Of a stretch of DNA of 64,000 nucleotides, positions 53,861 to 64,000 are shown piece by piece. Origin of the DNA: Carallia brachiata (Eukaryota; Streptophyta; Magnoliopsida; Malpighiales; Rhizophoraceae); contig JADCRB010000021.1 of the NCBI GenBank assembly GCA_021464245.1, positions 1,469,305 through 1,533,304 of the forward strand. Direction: 5' to 3'. Under the pieces are notes generated by a model, which saw only the letters and a program-made list of their open reading frames with translations, searched no databases and was not told the origin of the DNA. Within the stretch, counting starts at the first letter, position 1, and each line of letters starts with the position of its first letter. Made by a program: the position numbers and the translations under genes.

Positions 53861-54297
53861 TTTGTTGATCTTTCCACTTGTAAAGTCACATGATAAATCA
53901 TGAAATCTTTAATTACTTAGTGATCACTGTTATGCGTAATGTGTTATTTTCTTTAAAAAAAAATTTACCTTTTCTTTTTTGTTGCCAAGTGTATAAATAC
54001 AGACGTGTGTTTTCTTTCATTTTCATAGGAGGAAATTATAGTTTTTACTACAGCAAATTATCTTAGTTTGATGCTAATTATTGTAAATGGTTTTGACATT
54101 CCTTTTTGACATTCCTTTTTTTATGCTTGACAGATCCTTTTTTAATGCTTGACTGTCAATACACAAGCATGTTTTATGAGGTGGTAAACTTTGCTTGTTA
54201 TGGATTAACTGGTAATAGTCACTTCTTAACAGCTGGTTAAATGAAACACTATTAGATGGAGTTATCTTTGCTAAGTCAAAATTGAGAATATTCCTTT
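53861..54297. other. spacer flanking the retroelement array
   Basis: Non-coding sequence. The last five bases before the LTR (CCTTT, 54293-54297) would be one copy of the target-site duplication; its partner is outside the window. Confidence 0.5.
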
Positions 54298-54675
54298 TGT
54301 TGGTCCCGAAATTACCCAAGAGGGGGGTGAATTGGGTAATTAAAAAACTTATAGCAAAATAAATAAACTTGAATAAATAAAAATATGATATGAGAGATAA
54401 GTGAATCGTGTGCAAGTGATAAAAACAAACACAAAAGAATAACTAATTTTAATCGTGTGTGTTTGTGAAAGAAATCGAGATAAACAATATGTGCCACGTG
54501 TGTGTTAATGAGCAATGATAATGGGAGTTAAAGGAATAGAGAAATCAACACGAGTGATTTATAGTGGTTCGGCTTATCCCCAAGCCTACATCCACTCCCC
54601 AAGATCACCCTTGGGAATTTCACAATCCAGTATCAATCTTCTTCGCGGGTGAAGATTAAACCCTTACAACACTTT

Positions 54676-54789
54676 GGTCACCTGACCAAGAGCACACAAG
54701 CTCTTTTTTTCAATCACACAAAGGTCACCTGACCTTTCTCACAATCACTTGATGGTCACTTGACCACAGTCACACGAAGGTCCACGACC
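54676..54789. promoter_or_regulatory. cluster of four GGTCA...TGACC palindromes in LTR A
   Basis: GGTCACCTGACC at 54676-54687 and 54723-54734, GGTCACTTGACC at 54754-54765 and GGTCCACGACC at 54779-54789. Each has dyad symmetry or near symmetry, and several contain a TGACC W-box-like core. The same cluster, slightly altered (the first palindrome has lost a base), is present in LTR B at about 59512-59625. Confidence 0.5.
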
Positions 54790-55153
54790 TTATAAAGATT
54801 CACAAAGCTTTCACACAAAAAGAACAGATTTCTCACTAAAGCTCACTTTCTCCCTTTCTCTCTTCACTTATGGCTTCATTCTCTCTTACAAAGATTACAA
54901 AAAAAAACTTGCTCTCCTCTCTTTCTTTTTCTAGCACTCAATACTTACACAATAAAGCTCACAGCACATATGCAAAGAACACTTAAGAGAGATTAAGAGA
55001 GAATGAGAGGAATGGAGAGGGATGAATGGAGTCTTGGTGGAGACACCTATTTATAGGTGAAGGAGGGTGTAGGGGCTGCTGCAAGACATTAATGAGGGCT
55101 GATTTTACAGCCAATGGATCCCCAAAAATCGTGGTATTTAAAGATGATTATAC

Positions 55154-56245
55154 CTTGACAGATTTGACAGCTCTTTAGAAAATCATTCATATATCTATGT
55201 ATATAACTCCAAATTGCGTCCCGATTCATGCGTTTGAAAGTAGACATCCAGAGCTTTCCATCCATATAAATATCATGGCCTGATTCCACTCCAGCTAGCC
55301 GTGGTGCTTTCTGGAAGTTGACTGATCCCGCTGGACGGGACAGGCTGTACACCCTTCAGTATTTTGGCAATATCTCCTTCTAAAGAAATCCAATTTGTGC
55401 GATTCTGGTCAATTTAGAAACTAGACAGAATTATCTTTGTATGCATATAAGGTTCAACAGCTAATTCTTTCCCATTTGGTAGTAATCAACTCTTAAAGTA
55501 GACTGATCCTGTTAGCCTTGACAGATTGAGCACCTTTCAGTTCATAGACCATAACTTCCTCCACAAATGTCCAATTGAGATGATTCTTGAGAATTTGGAA
55601 AGTAGACAGAATTATCTTTCCATACATATAAGATTAATCACATGATTCTTCTCCAGCTGTCCATAGTGATCTCTCAAAGTAGACTAAACCAATGTATCTT
55701 GACAGCTTGCCCATAGCTTCCATTTTTGCCTGATAACATTCTATAGGAATATCCAATTAATGTGATTCTACATTATTGGAAAACTAGAATCAATCAGCTT
55801 TCTATCCATATATAGCTTGCCACAAAATTTTGCTCCATCCGATCATTACAGCTTCTAGAAGTTGGCTTATATAGAATGTCTTGACAGCTTGCACATGTTC
55901 CACCTTATTGCCCATAACTTCTTCCACACAACTCCAATCAATGTGAAAATTATTCCATTTGAAAGTAGACTCAATATGCTTTCCAATGACATATAGCTTG
56001 GCATGTAATTTATCCTAAGCAATCCGCAACATTCTTTGAAAATGTACCCATGCGTTGTGTTATCACAGCTTGAGTCCTCATTACTCTTTTAGTCACAACT
56101 TGCTATACAGAACTCCAATTGTCACGATTCTAGTGGCGTTGGAAACTAGACTCCTCTAGCTTTCCAACCATGTATGGCTTGTCATCTAATTCATCTCTAT
56201 GTTAACAAACGAGCCTTTGAAAGTTGACTGTATAGGATGATACTT
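55154..56245. repeat. six tandem repeats of about 181 bp inside LTR A
   Basis: Using the GACAG box as anchor, repeats start at 55157, 55339, 55520, 55701, 55883 and 56064 (CACAG in the last). The intervals are 182, 181, 181, 182 and 181. Each unit shares, in order, CTTGACAG, CCATAACTTC, a TCCAATT...GATTCT block, TTGGAAACTAGAC, AGCTTTCCAnCCATATA and AAAGTTGACT, with considerable divergence between units. LTR B has the same array with anchors at 59983, 60165, 60346, 60527, 60707 and 60888. Confidence 0.85.
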
Positions 56246-56347
56246 GAACTGAATAGAACCAATATCAGTAGTTATCTTGTGCTTGCATTTCTTCCATTCC
56301 AATTTATGTATGTTTAATTAAAAACCTTTAACTGCACGCTTAAATAA

Positions 56348-57226
56348 GAGTACCATGCTTCTCCCCCTTAATATATCAAAAGGTTCTCCCTTTTTGCTCA
56401 ACTAAGCAACCATATATTCTAAATGATATCATCACTCAAGATTGGCGCATAGATAGATAAAAAGATTAAAAAAGCAATTTGACTCAAGTGCATATGATCA
56501 TAATGAATCTCAAAAAATAAGTTACATCAATTTGAGCATGTAGAGAATTCAATCCTGCAATGCGATAATTGATGTAATTTCCTTAGAGGAAAATGTCTAA
56601 ATGAAACCTTAGGGGACTCATACAATGTAATCTCAAGAATGTAAGAACCAATCAAACAGTCACAGAGATAGTATATCATGTGACCTAAAAAATATATACT
56701 CAAATGCTGATCTCGCGAGGATAACGCAACGATGCTACAAAAATTGCAATATATGGTAATGACACGTGATAGTCGATGAATCAAATCTATATATATATAT
56801 ATATATAATCTCTTTTCTCAAATAGCAAAAATCATGCCAAAGAGTTCACTTCTAATTTCACATGAATGAGACATGACATGTAAGCAAACAATACAATAGA
56901 TAGAAATGATCAATAAAAAAGTGTCTCATAATATATGCCCATAAAAATCATATTCTCATGAAAATGACGTGCTCCCCCTTTCTATTGCAAAATATGCACT
57001 AATGTAGTAAACATTTACTCCCCCTAGCTAATATGGAACATGCATGAGATTTTAGGGGTAAAATGAATCATAACTGCAATCTTCAAGTAAGAATATGAAG
57101 CCAATAAATAAATGAGAATGCCATGAATGTGAGACTAAATACTTCAAACCTTGTAAGATATGTCTCATTTTTTTTTTTTTTTTTGAGTTGGATGGCGATA
57201 CAACTCTTCTCCACCTACAAAACAAT
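56348..57226 (-). other. non-coding internal region of retroelement copy A
   Basis: Lies between the gag stop and the LTR, where an autonomous element would have its pol genes. There is no protease, integrase or reverse-transcriptase signature in any frame. It contains CTCCCCC tracts (polypurine on the element strand) and a poly-T run at about 57169-57184. Confidence 0.75.
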
Positions 57227-59042
57227 TTAAGTAGGAGCTTTTGGTACCCAAATGTATTTGGGTCCTTTGGTGTTAGTTTTAGTGTCTTTTGCACTCACAA
57301 AAGAATATCTCATGCTTTGAATGCTTTTTCTAATATTGCATGAGTATGCCATATGACCATAATCTCCACAATAATGACATCTAACATGATATTTCTCTTG
57401 AGAAAATGAATGTTCATGAGATGCTTGAATGAAGTTATACATATGAGGCCTATATTTATGAGAAGATAATATAGATGAATCATAAATTGGTATTTTTGGT
57501 GATGAATGATCATGCCACGATGGTTGTTTAATAGAATAGTGAGGCTTATTATAACGTCGTGATGAATGAGCATACATAAATGCGTGATTGTTGCTTTTAG
57601 AAGTGGATGCTTGTGCATTTGTATTAGCAGCCTTGATTTGGGTTTTATGTGAGTGAAAACCCAATCCAGTTTTATCATTGAGTGGCCTTTGATATCCAAT
57701 CAATGAATCAAGCTTTTCTTTCCCCTTAACAAACTTTAAGAGGGAAATTCGGAGGTCTTCGTTTTCTTTTTTAAGGTGAACATTTTCCTCCTTTAGCTTG
57801 TTTAAAGCAATATGGTGACCTTTTTGCGAATCTTCACTTTCATTTTTAAGTGATTCATTTTCGCGTTTTAGGATCTCATTCTCAGTTTCCATTGCTTTGA
57901 AGCGAGCATTGAGATCACTAAATTTGGCTGCTTGTTTAAACATTTCTTTATTCATACATTCAAGCATATTCATCATATCATCATCATACGAGTCACAGTC
58001 AGAGTTTACCTCATTATCTTTTCCCATGAAGCACATGTAATTGGCTTCCTCATCAGAGGACTCGTCGTCTGAGTCGCTGGAATCGTCCCAAGTAGCTTTG
58101 TAAGCTTTTTTGGTCATCTTCTTCTTTCCCTTTTTCTTACTTGGACAATTAATTGCAATATGTCCAGGTTTGTTACATTCGTAACAAACAATTTCCTTTT
58201 TTTGACTATCACGTTCGGGCGAATGCTTGAGTAGCTTTCGACCAAATTGTTTTTTCTTTCTCAAAAATTTTGAGAACTTTCGTGCAAGCATTACGAACTC
58301 TTCTTGGTCTTGCTCATTGAATAAGCAATCGTCATCGTCCTCTTCATCATCATTCTCGACTTCTCTTCTAGTCGAGATGGAGGATTTGAACGCGACGCCT
58401 TTCTTTTTCTCCATAGTTCTCTTTTGCATGTCATCTCGTAGGTGAGTAGTGAACCCACCAACTCGTTCAACTGCAAGGTGTTTAGATCCTTTGACTCCGA
58501 GATTGCAACAGCTTTTGTATCCCATGACTCTGGAAGGGATCTTAACAATTTTTTTACTAGCTCTGCATTATCAAAGTTTCTTCCAAGATTCCTCAAAGAA
58601 TTAACAATTTTAGTAAATCTGGAATACATGTCAGTAATATTTTCATCATTACTCATTTCAAATAATTCATATTCACGCATCAGAATATTAATCTTACTGT
58701 CTTTAACTCGAGTGGTGCCCTCATACGTCACAACAAGAGTATCCCATATTTCTTTTGCTGATTGACACAAGAGATACGACTATATTCCTCGGGAGTCAGG
58801 GCACAATAGAGCAAGTATTTGGCTTTTGAATTTGTGTACTGAATTTTGGCTTCTTCGGGTGTGTACTCACTTTCGGGTTTGTCAACAATGACTCCATTTT
58901 CAGTTTTTGTAATTCTTCTAGGACCTTGGGAAATGACTGGCCAAACAGTAGGATCATAGCTTTGAAGATACATGGTCATTTTGTTTTTCCAATAACTGAA
59001 ATTGGTGCCATCGAAAATGGGAGGTCTAAGAGGATTTGGCAC
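57227..59042 (-). pseudogene. Ty1-copia-type gag of retroelement copy A (two frameshifts)
   Basis: Begins at the ATG 87 nt after the primer-binding site and ends with GPKYIWVPKAPT and a stop. The N-terminal part has the copia gag signature (FDGTNFSYWKNKM, then AKEIWDTL). It is followed by a basic/acidic linker, zinc knuckle CYECNKPGHIAINC (CX2CX4HX4C), an acidic Asp/Ser stretch, a Glu/Lys/Asn-rich coiled coil, and a second knuckle CHYCGDYGHMAYSC. Frame breaks at about 58764 (two A instead of three in copy B) and about 58424 (T4 versus T5) are one-base homopolymer losses. From 58424 to the stop the frame is open. No pol follows. Gag would form the particle that packages the element's RNA. Confidence 0.85.
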
Positions 59043-59117
59043 CCTCGGGGTGACACATGGGTTGAAGGGAAGTCATGGATCGACTCTTGGTGGTAAAACC
59101 GATAATTCAGAGACAGA

Positions 59118-59129
59118 GCTCTGATACCA
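59118..59129 (-). other. primer-binding site (initiator tRNA-Met type)
   Basis: On the element strand it reads TGGTATCAGAGC, the standard plant copia primer-binding site complementary to the 3' end of initiator methionine tRNA. It begins two bases after the LTR end (59132), which fixes the LTR boundary and the minus-strand orientation. Confidence 0.9.
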
Positions 59130-59131
59130 AT

Positions 59132-61237
59132 TGTTGGTCCCGAAATTACCAAGAGGGGGGTGAATTGGGTAATTTAAAAACTTATAGCAAAATAAATAAA
59201 CTTGAATAAATAAAAATATTATATGAAAGATAAGTGAATCGTGTGCAAGTGATAAAAATAAACACAAAAAAGAATAACTAATTTTAATCGTGTGTGTTTG
59301 TGAAAGAAATCGAGATAAACAATATGTGCCACGTGTGTGTTAATGAGCAATGATAATGAATGAGTTAAAGGGATAGAGAGATCAACACAAGAGATTTATA
59401 GTGGTTCGGCTTATCCCAAGCCTACATCCACTCCCCAAGATCACCCTTGGGAATTTCACAATCCAGTATCAATCTTCTTCGCGGGTGAAGATTAAACCCT
59501 TACAACACTTTGTCACCTGACCAAGAGCACACAGCTCTTTTTCTCAATCACACAAAGGTCACCTGACCTTTCTCACAATCACTTGATGGTCACTTGACCA
59601 CAGTCACACGAAGGTCCACGACCTTATAAAGATTCACAAAGCTTTCTCACAAAAAGAACAGATTTCTCACTAAAGCTCACTTTCTCCCTTTCTCTCTCAC
59701 TTATGGCTTCACTCTCTCTTACAAAGATTACAAAAAAAAACTTGCTCTCCTCTCTTTCTTTTTCTAGCACTCAATACTTACACAATAAAGCTCATATGCA
59801 AAGAACACTTAAGAGAGATTAAGAGAGAATGAGAGGAATGGAGAGGGATGAATGGAGTCTTGGTGGAGACACCTATTTATAGGTGAAGGAGGGTGTAGGG
59901 GCTGCTGCAAGACATTAATGAGGGCTGATTTTACAGCCAATGGATCCCCAAAAATCGTGGTATTTAAAGATGATTATACCTTGACAGATTTGACAGCTCT
60001 TTAGAAAATCATTCATATATCTCTGTATATAGCTCCAAATTGCGTCCCGATTCATGCGTTTGAAAGTAGACATCCAGAGCTTTCCATCCATATAAATATC
60101 ATGGCCTGATTCCACTCCAGCTAGCCGTGGTGCTTTCTGGAAGTTGACTGATCCCGCTGGACGGGACAGGCTGTACACCCTTCAGTATTTTGGCAATATC
60201 TCCTTCTAAAGAAATCCAATTTGTGCGATTCTGGTCAATTTAGAAACTAGACAGAATTATCTTTGTATGCATATAAGGTTCAACAGCTAATTCTTTCCCA
60301 TTTGGTAGTAATCAACTCTTAAAGTAGACTGATCCTGTTAGCCTTGACAGATTGAGCACCTTTCAGTTCATAGACCATAACTTCCTCCACAAATGTCCAA
60401 TTGAGATGATTCTTGAGAATTTGGAAAGTAGACAGAATTATCTTTCCATACATATAAGATTAATCACATGATTCTTCTCCAGCTGTCCATAGTGATCTCT
60501 CAAAGTAGACTAAACCAATGTATCTTGACAGCTTGCCCAAGCTTCCATTTTGCCCAATAACATTCTATAGGAATATCCAATTAATGCGATTCTACATTAT
60601 TTGAAACCTAGACTCAATCAGCTTTCTATCCATATATAGCTTGCCACAAAATTGTGCTCCATCCGATCATTATAGCTTCTAGAAGCTGACTTATATAGAA
60701 TGTCTTGACAGCTTGTACATGTTCCACCTTATTGCCCATAACTTCTTCCACACAATTCCAATCAATGTGAAAATTATTCCATTTGAAAGTAGACTCAATA
60801 TGCTTTCCAATGACATATATCTTGGCATGTAATTTATCCTAAGCAATCCGCAACATTCTTTGAAAATGTACCCATGCGTTGTGTTATCACAGCTTGAGTC
60901 CTCATTACTCTTTTAGTCACAACTTGCTATACAGAACTCCAATTGTCACGATTCTAGTGGCGTTGGAAACTAGACTCCTCTAGCTTTCCAACCATGTATG
61001 GCTTGTCATCTAATTCATCTCTATTTTAACAAACGAGCCTTTGAAAGTTGACTGTATAGGATGATACTTGAACTGAATAGAACAATATCAGTAGTTATCT
61101 TGTGCTTGCATTTCTTCCATTCCAATTTATGTATGTTTGATTAAAAACCTTTAACTGCACGCTTAAATAAACATATTAGTAATTCTCAATGTTTTGTAAT
61201 CATCAAAACCGAATAATGAAACCTTAGGATCTCAACA
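59132..61237 (-). mobile_element. LTR B of the tandem retroelement, full length (2106 bp)
   Basis: On the + strand it starts TGTTGGTCC and ends ATCTCAACA, giving inverted TGTTG/CAACA ends. It is bounded by a primer-binding site on one side and a polypurine tract on the other, so it sits as 3' LTR of the upper copy and 5' LTR of the lower copy at once. It contains the repeat of about 181 bp (about 59980-61070). Confidence 0.9.
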
Positions 61238-61251
61238 TTCTCCCCCTTTTT
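61238..61251 (-). other. polypurine tract of the upper retroelement copy
   Basis: On the element strand it reads AAAAAGGGGGAGAA directly before the LTR start TGTTGAG. Similar CTCCCCC tracts (+ strand) recur near 61320, 61380, 61981 and 62028, a multiple-tract arrangement known from Sirevirus-type copia elements. Confidence 0.8.
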
Positions 61252-62235
61252 GATGATGACAAAACATTGATGCAAATAATAATATAGTCAAATGTAAAAG
61301 GCAATGCATCAATATATTTCTCCCCCTTTTTGTCAGAAATCAAAAAGGGTCTATAGACAAAAAAGAGTACCATGCTTCTCCCCCTTAATATATCAAAAGG
61401 TTCTCCCTTTTTGCTCAACTAAGCAACATATATTCTAAATGATATCATCACTCAAGATAGGCGCATAGATAGATAAAAAGATTAAAAAAGCAATTTGACT
61501 CAAGTGCATATGATCATAATGAATCTCAAAAAATAAGTACATCAATTTGAGCATGTAGAGAATTCAATCCTGCAATGCGATAATTGATGTAATTTCCTTA
61601 GAGGAAAATGTCTAAATGAAACCTTAGGGGACTCATACAATGTAATCTCAGAATGTAAGAACCAATCAAACAGTCACGAGATAGTATATCATGTGACCTA
61701 AAAAATATATACTCAAATGTGATCTCGCGAGGATAACGCAACGATGCTACAAAAATTGCAATATATGGTAATGACACATGATAGTCGATGAATCAAATCC
61801 ATATATATATATATAAATCTCTTTTCTCAAATAGCAAAAATCATGCCAAAGAGTTCACTTCTAATTTCACATGAATGAGACATGACATGTAAGCAAACAA
61901 TACAATAGATAGAAATGATCAATAAAAAAGTGTCTCATAATATATGCCCATAAAAATCATATTCTCATGAAAATGACGTGCTCCCCCTTTCTATTGCAAA
62001 ATATGCACTAATGTAGTAAACATTTACTCCCCCTAGCTAATATGGAACATGCATGAGATTTTAGGGGTAAAATGAATCATAACTGCAATCTTCAAGTAAG
62101 AATATGAAGCCAATAAATAAATGAGAATGCCATGAATGTGAGACTAAATACTTCAAACCTTGTAAGATATGTCTCATTTTTTTTTTTTTTTTTGAGTTGG
62201 ATGGCGATACAACTCTTCTCCACCTACAAAACAAT
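61252..62235 (-). other. non-coding internal region of retroelement copy B
   Basis: Counterpart of 56348-57226, but it retains the part next to the LTR that copy A lost. No pol domain is visible. It includes an AT microsatellite (about 61801-61814) and several CTCCCCC tracts. Confidence 0.75.
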
Positions 62236-64000
62236 TTAAGTAGGAGCTTTTGGTACCCAAATGTATTTGGGTCCTTTGGTGTTAGTTTTAGTGCCTTTTG
62301 CACTCACAAAGAATATCTCATGCTTTGAATGCTTTTTCTAATATTGCATGAGTATGCCATATGACCATAATCTCCACAATAATGACATCTAACATGATAT
62401 TTCTTGAGAAAATGAATGTTCATGAGATGCTTGAATGAAGTTATACATATGAGGCCTATATTTATGAGAAGATAATATAGATGAATCATAAATTGGTATT
62501 TTTGGTGATGAATGATCATGCCACGATGGTTGTTTAATGATAGTGAGGCTATTATGCGTCGTGATGAATGAGCATACATAAATGCGTGATTGTTGCTTTG
62601 AAGTGGATGCTTGTGCATTTGTATTAGCAGCCTTGGTTTGGGTTTATGTGAGCGAAAACCCAATCCAGTTTTATCATTGAGTGGCCTTTGATATCCAATC
62701 AATGAATCAAGCTTTTCTTTCCCCTTAACAAACTTTAAAGGGAAATTCGGAGGTCTTCGTTTTCTTTTTTAAGGTGAACATTTTCCTCCTTTAGCTTGTT
62801 TAAAGCAATATGGTGACTTTTTGCGAATCTTCACTTTCATTTTTAAGTGATTCATTTTCGCGTTTTAGGATCTCATTCTCAGTTTCCATTGCTTTGAAGC
62901 GAGCATTGAGATCACTAAATTTGGCTGCTTGTTTAAACATTTCTTTATTCATACATTCAAGCATATTCATCATATCATCATCATACGAGTCACAGTCAGA
63001 GTTTACCTCATTATCTTTTCCCATGAAGCACATGTAATTGCTTCCTCATCAGAGGACTCGTCGTCTGAGTCGCTGGAATCGTCCCAAGGAGCTTGTAAGC
63101 TTTTTGGTCATCTTCTTCTTTCCCTTTTTCTTACTTGGACAATTAATTGCAATATGTCCAGGTTTGTTACATTCGTAACAAACAATTTCCTTTTTTTGAC
63201 TATCACGTTCGGGCGAATGCTTGAGTAGCTTTCGACCAAATTGTTTTTTCTTTCTCAAAAATTTTGAGAACTTTCGTGCAAGCATTACGAACTCTTCTTG
63301 GTCTTGCTCATTGAATAAGCAATCGTCATCGTCCTCTTCATCATCATTCTCGACTTCTCTTCTAGTCGAGATGGAGGATTTGAACGCGACGCCTTTCTTT
63401 TTCTCCATAGTTCTCTTTTTGCATGTCATCTCGTAGGTGAGTAGTGAACCCACCAACTCGTTCAACTGCAAGGTGTTTAGATCCTTTGACTCCGAGATTG
63501 CAACAGCTTTTGTATCCCATGACTCTGGAAGGGATCTTAACAATTTTTTTACTAGCTCTGCATTATCAAAGTTTCTTCCAAGATTCCTCAAAGAATTAAC
63601 AATTTTAGTAAATCTGGAATACATGTCAGTAATATTTTCATCATTACTCATTTCAAATAATTCATATTCACGCATCAGAATATTAATCTTACTGTCTTTA
63701 ACTCGAGTGGTGCCCTCATACGTCACAACAAGAGTATCCCATATTTCTTTTGCTGATTGACACAAAGAGATACGACTATATTCCTCGGGAGTCAGGGCAC
63801 AATAGAGCAAGTATTTGGCTTTTGAATTTGTGTACTGAATTTTGGCTTCTTCGGGTGTGTACTCACTTTCGGGTTTGTCAACAATGACTCCATTTTCAGT
63901 TTTTGTAATTCTTCTAGGACCTTGGGAAATGACTGGCCAAACAGTAGGATCATAGCTTTGAAGATACATGGTCATTTTGTTTTTCCAATAACTGAAATTG
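62236..64000 (-). pseudogene. Ty1-copia-type gag of retroelement copy B (partial, several frameshifts)
   Basis: Same protein as copy A. The N-terminal half (63049-63975) is a continuous frame through the first zinc knuckle and is intact at both places where copy A is broken. The C-terminal half is interrupted at about 63091-63103, 63040, 62816, 62739 and repeatedly around 62540-62645, mostly by single-base losses. The start codon, primer-binding site and next LTR lie beyond the window end. Confidence 0.85.

What the first reader, a model, noticed from the sequence alone, without database searches (positions are those of the whole stretch)
55154..56245. LTR built from six tandem repeats with a regular period of about 181 bp
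The GACAG anchors are spaced 182, 181, 181, 182 and 181 bp in LTR A and 182, 181, 181, 180 and 181 bp in LTR B, although the units have diverged strongly. The period is in the range of plant satellite monomers and nucleosome spacing. A satellite-like array forming over half of an LTR could be a source of satellite DNA, a phased-nucleosome device, or a multi-copy enhancer. Constant spacing with divergent sequence hints that length has been kept.
Basis: partly seen in the sequence, partly recalled or inferred. Interest (0 to 1): 0.75.

Follow-up and report, generated by a model that had tools for sequence, protein, structure and literature searches.

The report
Six-unit promoter array in a retrotransposon
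A plant retrotransposon carries, just upstream of its own promoter, six old copies of a 181-letter unit whose wording has drifted far apart while their length has hardly changed, which makes it a natural test of whether spacing rather than sequence is what matters in such DNA.

Summary
LTR A (54298–56347) and LTR B (59132–61237) each hold six units of 180–182 bp. Within LTR A the units are 50–67% identical, with 0–2 gap columns per pair. Profiles from five units find the sixth at E 9e-19 to 7e-36.

The element lies on the minus strand: a gag-only copia-type LTR retrotransposon, no pol found. The array fills 52% of LTR B and lies in U3, 95 bp upstream of a TATA box. The window holds two tandem elements sharing LTR B.

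In the host genome 40 of 273 candidate places were scored; all are this array. Of 46 arrays in the fetched stretches and window, 43 have six units and 3 are cut short; units group by position, so the array is frozen, not turning over. Insertions are young (LTR pairs 0.2–1.1% apart); units are about 100-fold more diverged.

Unit length is kept far better than neutral decay predicts, unless reverse transcription rarely makes indels. I favour a spacing-constrained U3 promoter region, with moderate confidence. A satellite source is not supported by the copies seen; nucleosome phasing is untested. Diverged relatives could not be searched: the genome server stopped answering.

The parts
54293..54297 (.). 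target site duplication CCTTT, left side; the right copy lies beyond the window after the third LTR (L009)
54298..56347 (-). LTR A (3' LTR of the first element); lacks the first ~70 bp of U3 and the adjoining PPT, about 190 bp missing relative to LTR B
55047..55056 (-). TATA box CTATAAATAG of LTR A, 95 bp downstream (element strand) of the array
55152..55333 (-). unit 1 of the 181-bp array, LTR A (182 bp)
55334..55514 (-). unit 2, LTR A (181 bp)
55515..55695 (-). unit 3, LTR A (181 bp); identical over all 181 bp at 24 of the 40 scored genome places
55696..55877 (-). unit 4, LTR A (182 bp)
55878..56058 (-). unit 5, LTR A (181 bp)
56059..56240 (-). unit 6, LTR A (182 bp; anchor reads CACAG)
57227..59072 (-). 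gag region of the first element, broken into overlapping frames (gag PF14223 piece, zinc knuckle PF00098 piece); no pol domain in the six minus-strand ORFs of 70 aa or more that lie wholly in this internal region
59118..59129 (-). primer binding site TGGTATCAGAGC, 2 nt after the 5' LTR (taken as initiator tRNA-Met, recalled)
59132..61237 (-). LTR B, 2106 bp, TGTTGAGA...GACCAACA; 5' LTR of the first element and 3' LTR of the second
59873..59882 (-). TATA box of LTR B
59978..61064 (-). six-unit array of LTR B: 59978-60159, 60160-60340, 60341-60521, 60522-60701, 60702-60882, 60883-61064 (182, 181, 181, 180, 181, 182 bp)
60863..60953 (-). about 90 bp (element LTR positions ~285-375, unit 6 into unit 5) without a variable column in 39 distinct full LTRs; coordinates approximate
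61238..61251 (-). polypurine tract next to LTR B, AAAAAGGGGGAGAA
63049..64000 (-). gag of the second tandem element, running off the window (PF14223, PF00098)

Best explanation
Shown: an old tandem array of six units of 181 +/- 1 bp sits in the U3 region of a young gag-only copia-type retrotransposon family, 95 bp upstream of the TATA box. In the copies sampled it is present whole (3 of 46 cut short), keeps six units and keeps each unit's identity by position. Inferred: the array is the element's upstream promoter region. A founder unit was multiplied in the ancestor of the family. The copies then drifted in sequence while lineages with altered spacing were lost, because a repeated one-nucleosome-sized or helically in-phase spacing of short boxes (around TTGACAG, ACTCCAATT, GGAAANTAGAC and GCTTTCC) helps U3 recruit transcription factors or stay accessible. 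Function through spacing is the inferred step; it has no expression or chromatin evidence here.
For: Six units recovered by leave-one-out profiles. Mean Jukes-Cantor distance between units 0.66, yet lengths of 181-182 bp in LTR A and 0-2 gap events per pair. In simulations six lengths stay within 1 bp in 0.02% of runs at an indel:substitution ratio of 0.1, and in none of 20,000 at 0.3. The ratio in 11 LTR pairs of the family is 128:153, or 82:156 without homopolymer indels. Position upstream of TATA. 43 of 46 arrays have six units (3 cut short), and 6 of 6 unit positions are monophyletic among 42 distinct arrays. In 39 distinct full LTRs a 90-column stretch of unit 6 and the edge of unit 5 has no variable column (permutation P 0.001). 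Conservation between units looks concentrated in boxes (not tested for significance).
Against: Permissive gap penalties put 0-17 gap events in the same unit pairs, so only net length is firmly known; LTR B lengths range over 2 bp. LTR-pair indels reflect host decay plus possible assembly errors, and may not be the right yardstick for reverse-transcriptase mutations. In recent decay the array takes indels about as often as the rest of the LTR (54 per 70 substitutions against 74 per 83). Apart from the one invariant stretch the array is not more conserved within the family (90-bp bins pi 0.0006-0.0251 in the array, 0.0073-0.0275 outside). Single copies have unit lengths of 174-184 bp, with outliers of 137 and 215 bp in unit 6 (possibly alignment-end effects). 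No GC nucleosome/linker profile (p 0.38). A survey of 282 species found centromere-repeat monomer length not conserved (PMC4053949, passage), which weakens arguments from a nucleosome-like length.
Confidence: 0.42

Rival explanations
1. Frozen relic without a spacing function: the array arose by slippage or template switching in an ancestor and has been copied since. Its lengths look constant because most changes in an active lineage are reverse-transcription errors, which are mainly substitutions.
For: Apart from one stretch, the array evolves no slower than other LTR parts within the family. Units are strictly positional with no exchange seen. No RNA structure, Rfam or coding signal.
Against: It needs a very low indel share (a ratio of 0.02 gives a 4% chance of lengths within 1 bp). 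Conservation looks clumped, with invariant columns such as ACAG, TCCA, AAA-TAGA and CTTT. A 90-column stretch is invariant in 39 LTRs.
Confidence: 0.33
2. Captured satellite: the LTR took up a short stretch of an older host satellite whose roughly 181-bp monomers had already diverged at constant length.
For: The period and the divergent, equal-length monomers resemble some centromere satellites (171 bp in human and 178 bp in Arabidopsis are quoted in PMC4053949, passage seen). A weak internal sub-repeat at lag 77 (permutation p 0.0005) points to an older, compound monomer.
Against: All 40 scored places for the whole array, and the 80 matches of unit 3 in 40 scored places (unit 3 and its neighbour side by side), fit this LTR; no long array appeared. 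Only 40 of 273 and 40 of 228 candidates were scored, so it is not excluded. The same survey reports that monomer length is not conserved among centromere repeats.
Confidence: 0.12
3. RNA element: the array acts in the 3' end of the genomic RNA (U3 of the 3' LTR), for example in stability, packaging or template switching.
For: U3 is transcribed at the 3' end (established for LTR elements); plant LTR elements with 3'UTR arrays exist (Ogre, PMC7004042, passages).
Against: RNAalifold on 10 unit sequences predicts no pair; no Rfam family. By eye the GGAAAG...CTTTCC inverted motif is not kept in every unit (sequences).
Confidence: 0.08
4. Remnant of coding DNA: the units descend from an integrase zinc-binding (H2C2) segment of another retrotransposon.
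For: The unit 1 ORF 55092-55355 (-) matches PF17921 at E 2.9e-4, 21.3 bits, below the 25.5 cut-off; the LTR B copy at 4.8e-4.
Against: Seven other array pieces scanned on the element strand (four of LTR A, three of LTR B) match nothing in Pfam; frames broken by stops, such as the unit 6 core, were not scanned. No codon-position pattern (p 0.38 whole unit, 0.74 core). No protein relatives. The period is not a multiple of 3.
Confidence: 0.03

Closest known systems
Tandem repeats between pol and the 3' LTR of Ty3/gypsy Tat elements (Ogre, Retand) and the satellites derived from them (PMC7004042 and PMC11963269, passages seen)
   Same: Short tandem arrays inside plant LTR retrotransposons, dispersed with the element
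   Different: There the arrays lie in the internal 3' region of gypsy elements and are described as hypervariable and family-specific; here the array is inside the LTR of a copia-type element, six units in the uncut copies seen, strongly diverged and of constant length
CRM1TR and CRM4TR, tandem repeats derived from maize centromeric retrotransposons (PMC3648361, passages seen)
   Same: LTR sequence involved in tandem repetition
   Different: There a long LTR-UTR segment became a genomic tandem array; here the repeats are inside the LTR and no outside array was seen
Retroviral U3 enhancer repeats, e.g. multimerised LTR repeats in PERV (PMC8625113, passages seen)
   Same: Repeats in the LTR that can serve the promoter
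   Different: Those change copy number on passaging, and more repeats go with higher expression; here the copy number is constant in the copies seen and the units are long and diverged
Retrosat2, a rice element with LTRs over 3.2 kb (PMC3485330, passages seen)
   Same: Long plant LTR with repeated regulatory signals, which its authors suggest give redundancy
   Different: Its tandem repeats are seven copies of a 6-bp motif in R; its U3 is 244 bp, with no long-unit array in the passages seen
TR-GAG, gag-only non-autonomous LTR elements (definition recalled; term seen in a search listing)
   Same: LTRs, PBS, PPT, gag only
   Different: An LTR array is not part of the definition as I recall it

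Membership tests
Ty1/copia-type LTR retrotransposon | TG...CA LTRs and 5-bp target duplication | tested here: met
   20 insertions could be read at both ends (12 two-LTR elements, 2 tandems, 6 solo LTRs); 19 have identical 5-bp flanks and one (L030) differs at one base. Four two-LTR elements (L010, L012, L015, L016) and solo L024 carry TA instead of TG at the outer U3 end
Ty1/copia-type LTR retrotransposon | copia-type gag with zinc knuckle | tested here: met
   PF14223 E 1.2e-33 and PF00098 E 1.3e-5
Ty1/copia-type LTR retrotransposon | pol order PR-INT-RT-RH | tested here: not met
   No pol domain in the six minus-strand ORFs of 70 aa or more lying wholly in the first internal region; so at most a non-autonomous relative. 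Other copies were not scanned
TR-GAG non-autonomous element (definition recalled) | LTRs, PBS, PPT and a gag domain only | tested here: met
   for the window's elements
TR-GAG non-autonomous element (definition recalled) | mobilised by an autonomous partner | not tested
   The gag search of the genome did not complete
Satellite DNA | long homogeneous arrays outside mobile elements | tested here: inconclusive
   None among 40 scored places; 233 of 273 candidates not scored
Satellite DNA | copy-number turnover and homogenisation of units | tested here: not met
   43 of 46 arrays have six units, 2 are cut by the fetched stretch and 1 is in a truncated LTR; 6 of 6 positions monophyletic in 42 distinct arrays
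U3 multi-copy enhancer | repeats upstream of TATA in U3 | tested here: met
U3 multi-copy enhancer | repeats raise transcription | not testable with these tools
   No expression data
Phased-nucleosome array | nucleosomes positioned once per unit | not testable with these tools
   No MNase data; sequence proxies weak

The most novel reading that the evidence does not exclude
A retrotransposon promoter built as a ruler: selection has kept six near-nucleosome-length steps upstream of TATA, perhaps for tens of millions of years, while the sequence on the steps drifted to about half identity, so U3 works largely by spacing (nucleosome or helical register) rather than by sequence.
Probability: 0.2. 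Interest if true: 0.75.

Novelty: new variant of a known kind. Interest (0 to 1): 0.42.

Why it matters
Why many tandem repeats have nucleosome-like lengths is an old question, hard to study in large satellites because their units are homogenised. Here the units are few, old, not homogenised and copied as one block into at least 40 places, next to a defined TATA box. If the length constraint holds in related families, this is a small testable promoter in which spacing and sequence can be separated. If reverse transcription alone explains the lack of indels, that is a useful caution for claims of length constraint in LTRs.

Tried and rejected
Satellite seed: no support in the copies seen, not excluded genome-wide. 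Coding origin: PF17921 in unit 1 only, below cut-off; no codon-position signal; no protein relatives. NCBIfam and PDB gave nothing useful. RNA structure and Rfam: none. Nucleosome proxies: 10.07-bp AT-dinucleotide power is 9.1, fourth among 60 harmonics of 181; unit phases run from -59 to +58 degrees, which homology alone can give; GC profile p 0.38. Viral and prokaryote collections: no relatives. In-print check: literature searches listed no plant LTR array of this kind in the titles, abstract starts and passages I saw; I looked into seven of the listed papers by passages and one on pig retroviruses, and opened none whole.

Counts that left rows out: the 11 LTR pairs do not include LTR A against LTR B (29 substitutions, 11 indels over 2029 aligned bases); one of 43 six-unit arrays was dropped as identical, and the two arrays cut by fetched stretches lie in the overlap with L034 and L035, where they are whole; one search leaves out gappy alignment columns.

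Full report
Check of the observation. Because GACAG also occurs off register, I tested the units over their full length. Ungapped self-identity of the array peaks at lag 181 with 0.504; the best lag between 100 and 299 in any of 1000 dinucleotide shuffles reaches 0.335. blastn aligns the arrays one unit on over 515–527 bp at 66–67%. A profile from five units of LTR A finds the sixth in both LTRs, 6 of 6 times, at E 9e-19 to 7e-36. No seventh unit was found in the window; in a scan without speed filters the best other window hit has E 5.5. Tandem Repeats Finder does not show the array in the rows listed (5 rows not shown), as expected for units below about 70% identity.

Anatomy. The element is on the minus strand. 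LTR B is 2106 bp long, from TGTTGAGA to GACCAACA, at 59132–61237. Two bases after it comes TGGTATCAGAGC, then gag, then a purine tract AAAAAGGGGGAGAA next to the other LTR. ORFs match copia-type gag (PF14223, E 1.2e-33 in the second copy) and a zinc knuckle. The six minus-strand ORFs of 70 aa or more lying wholly in the first internal region show no pol domain, so this is a gag-only, non-autonomous element. On the element's strand the array occupies LTR positions 174–1260 and a TATA box (CTATAAATAG) begins at 1356. The array is therefore U3 sequence upstream of the promoter. LTR A lacks about 190 bp at its U3/PPT junction.

Tandem elements. The blocks 54298–59004 and 59132–64000 repeat each other. 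A third LTR lies just beyond the window, and the whole LTR-internal-LTR-internal-LTR set is flanked by CCTTT on both sides. A second such tandem, on contig C85 (L019 and L033), is flanked by GTGAT. Recombination between LTRs is a known way to such tandems (PMC12628747, passage seen). A title in the reference list of PMC3485330 (the cited paper itself not seen) says that longer LTRs in Ty1 lead to tandem multimers, which is a lead for elements with 2.1-kb LTRs.

Family members. In the host genome (337.5 Mb in 164 contigs) the 40 best of 273 candidate places were scored. All are this array: 38 over all 1092 bases, one over 1–1004, one over 149–1092. I fetched 28 loci. With the window they hold 46 arrays: 43 with six units, 2 cut by the ends of the fetched stretch (whole in overlapping loci L034 and L035), and 1 with five units in a truncated LTR. 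After dropping one identical array, 42 remain. A tree of their 252 units has six clades, one per position, 42 of 42 in each, with support 0.59–1.0. Units have thus not been exchanged, gained or lost in the sampled copies. Target duplications of 5 bp are identical in 19 of 20 insertions readable at both ends, and one differs at one base. Six of the 20 are solo LTRs (L024, L026, L027, L030, L031, L032).

Age contrast. LTR pairs of ten two-LTR elements and of one pair in the tandem differ by 0.24–1.10%; LTR A against LTR B, not in that set, has 29 substitutions in 2029 aligned bases, 10 of them in unit 4. Units differ by a mean Jukes-Cantor distance of 0.66. With the often used LTR rate of 1.3e-8 per site and year (recalled), that is roughly 0.1–0.4 million years for the insertions and about 25 million years for the units.

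Is length kept? Pairs of units carry 59–90 substitutions (mean 79) and 0–2 gap events in the multiple alignment. The 11 LTR pairs carry 153 substitutions and 128 indel events; without homopolymer indels the count is 82 to 156 substitutions. In a star simulation with the observed indel sizes, the chance that six units stay within 1 bp is 0.0002 at an indel:substitution ratio of 0.1, 0.003 at 0.05 and 0.04 at 0.02. So length is kept unless indels are very rare in this lineage. There are cautions. Looser gap penalties allow up to 17 gap events in a pair. The LTR-pair ratio may contain assembly errors. In these recent pairs the array takes indels about as often as the rest (54 against 74, with 70 against 83 substitutions), so dead copies show no constraint. 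And reverse transcription may make few indels, for which I have no control, because related families could not be searched.

Constraint on sequence. Across 39 distinct full LTRs diversity in the array is like that outside it (90-bp bins), with one exception: a 90-column stretch from LTR position about 285, in unit 6 and the edge of unit 5, has no variable column (276 of 2108 columns vary overall; permutation P 0.001). The permutation ignores shared descent and gappy columns, so this is a lead: part of the array may be held by sequence, not spacing.

Tests that gave nothing. There is no consensus RNA fold in 10 unit sequences and no Rfam match. There is no codon-position pattern, and no protein relatives of array translations. 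The unit 1 ORF matches the integrase zinc-binding family PF17921 at E 2.9e-4, below the curated cut-off. Seven other array pieces on the element strand do not match, so I treat it as chance or at most a lead. GC content shows no nucleosome/linker pattern, and the 10-bp dinucleotide signal is not distinct. A weak inner similarity at lag 77 (permutation p 0.0005) suggests that the unit itself arose from a shorter duplication.

Reading. The position in U3, the constant number and length of units, and the boxes of conservation make a modular upstream promoter region the best guess, with spacing kept better than sequence (0.42). The strongest rival is a frozen relic whose equal lengths reflect the mutation spectrum of reverse transcription (0.33). 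Satellite capture (0.12) and RNA function (0.08) are less likely, and a coding origin is unlikely (0.03).

Known and new. Tandem arrays in plant LTR elements are known, mainly (in what I saw) in the internal 3' region of Ty3/gypsy Tat elements, where they are hypervariable and can seed satellites (PMC7004042, PMC11963269, passages). Enhancer repeats in LTRs are known from retroviruses (PMC8625113, passages), and repeated regulatory signals from the long LTRs of rice Retrosat2 (PMC3485330, passages). Among the papers my searches listed I saw no plant LTR with a fixed, strongly diverged, equal-length array; that is a limited check. I rate it a new variant of a known kind.

Noticed in passing
54293-64000 and L009:1-2300; L019 and L033: Two tandems of two gag-only elements sharing an LTR, each between one pair of 5-bp target duplications (CCTTT; GTGAT).
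   Followed up: yes
about 60863-60953 (LTR B): A 90-column stretch of unit 6 and the edge of unit 5 without a variable column in 39 distinct full LTRs.
   Followed up: partly
56343-56366 versus 61162-61360: About 190 bp present at the LTR B/internal junction (LTR end, PPT and a second PPT-like purine tract) is missing at LTR A.
   Followed up: partly
55696-55877 versus 60522-60701: Differences between LTR A and LTR B cluster in unit 4: 10 of the 16 substitutions in the array, perhaps a conversion patch.
   Followed up: partly
55092-55355 (-): Sub-threshold match of the unit 1 ORF to the integrase zinc-binding family PF17921.
   Followed up: yes
L010:850, L012:1085, L015:7660, L016:1011, L024:4087: Several copies have TA instead of TG at the outer U3 end of the LTR, yet show good 5-bp target duplications.
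   Followed up: no
L011:484-5061: Two LTR copies in opposite orientation close together on C106.
   Followed up: no
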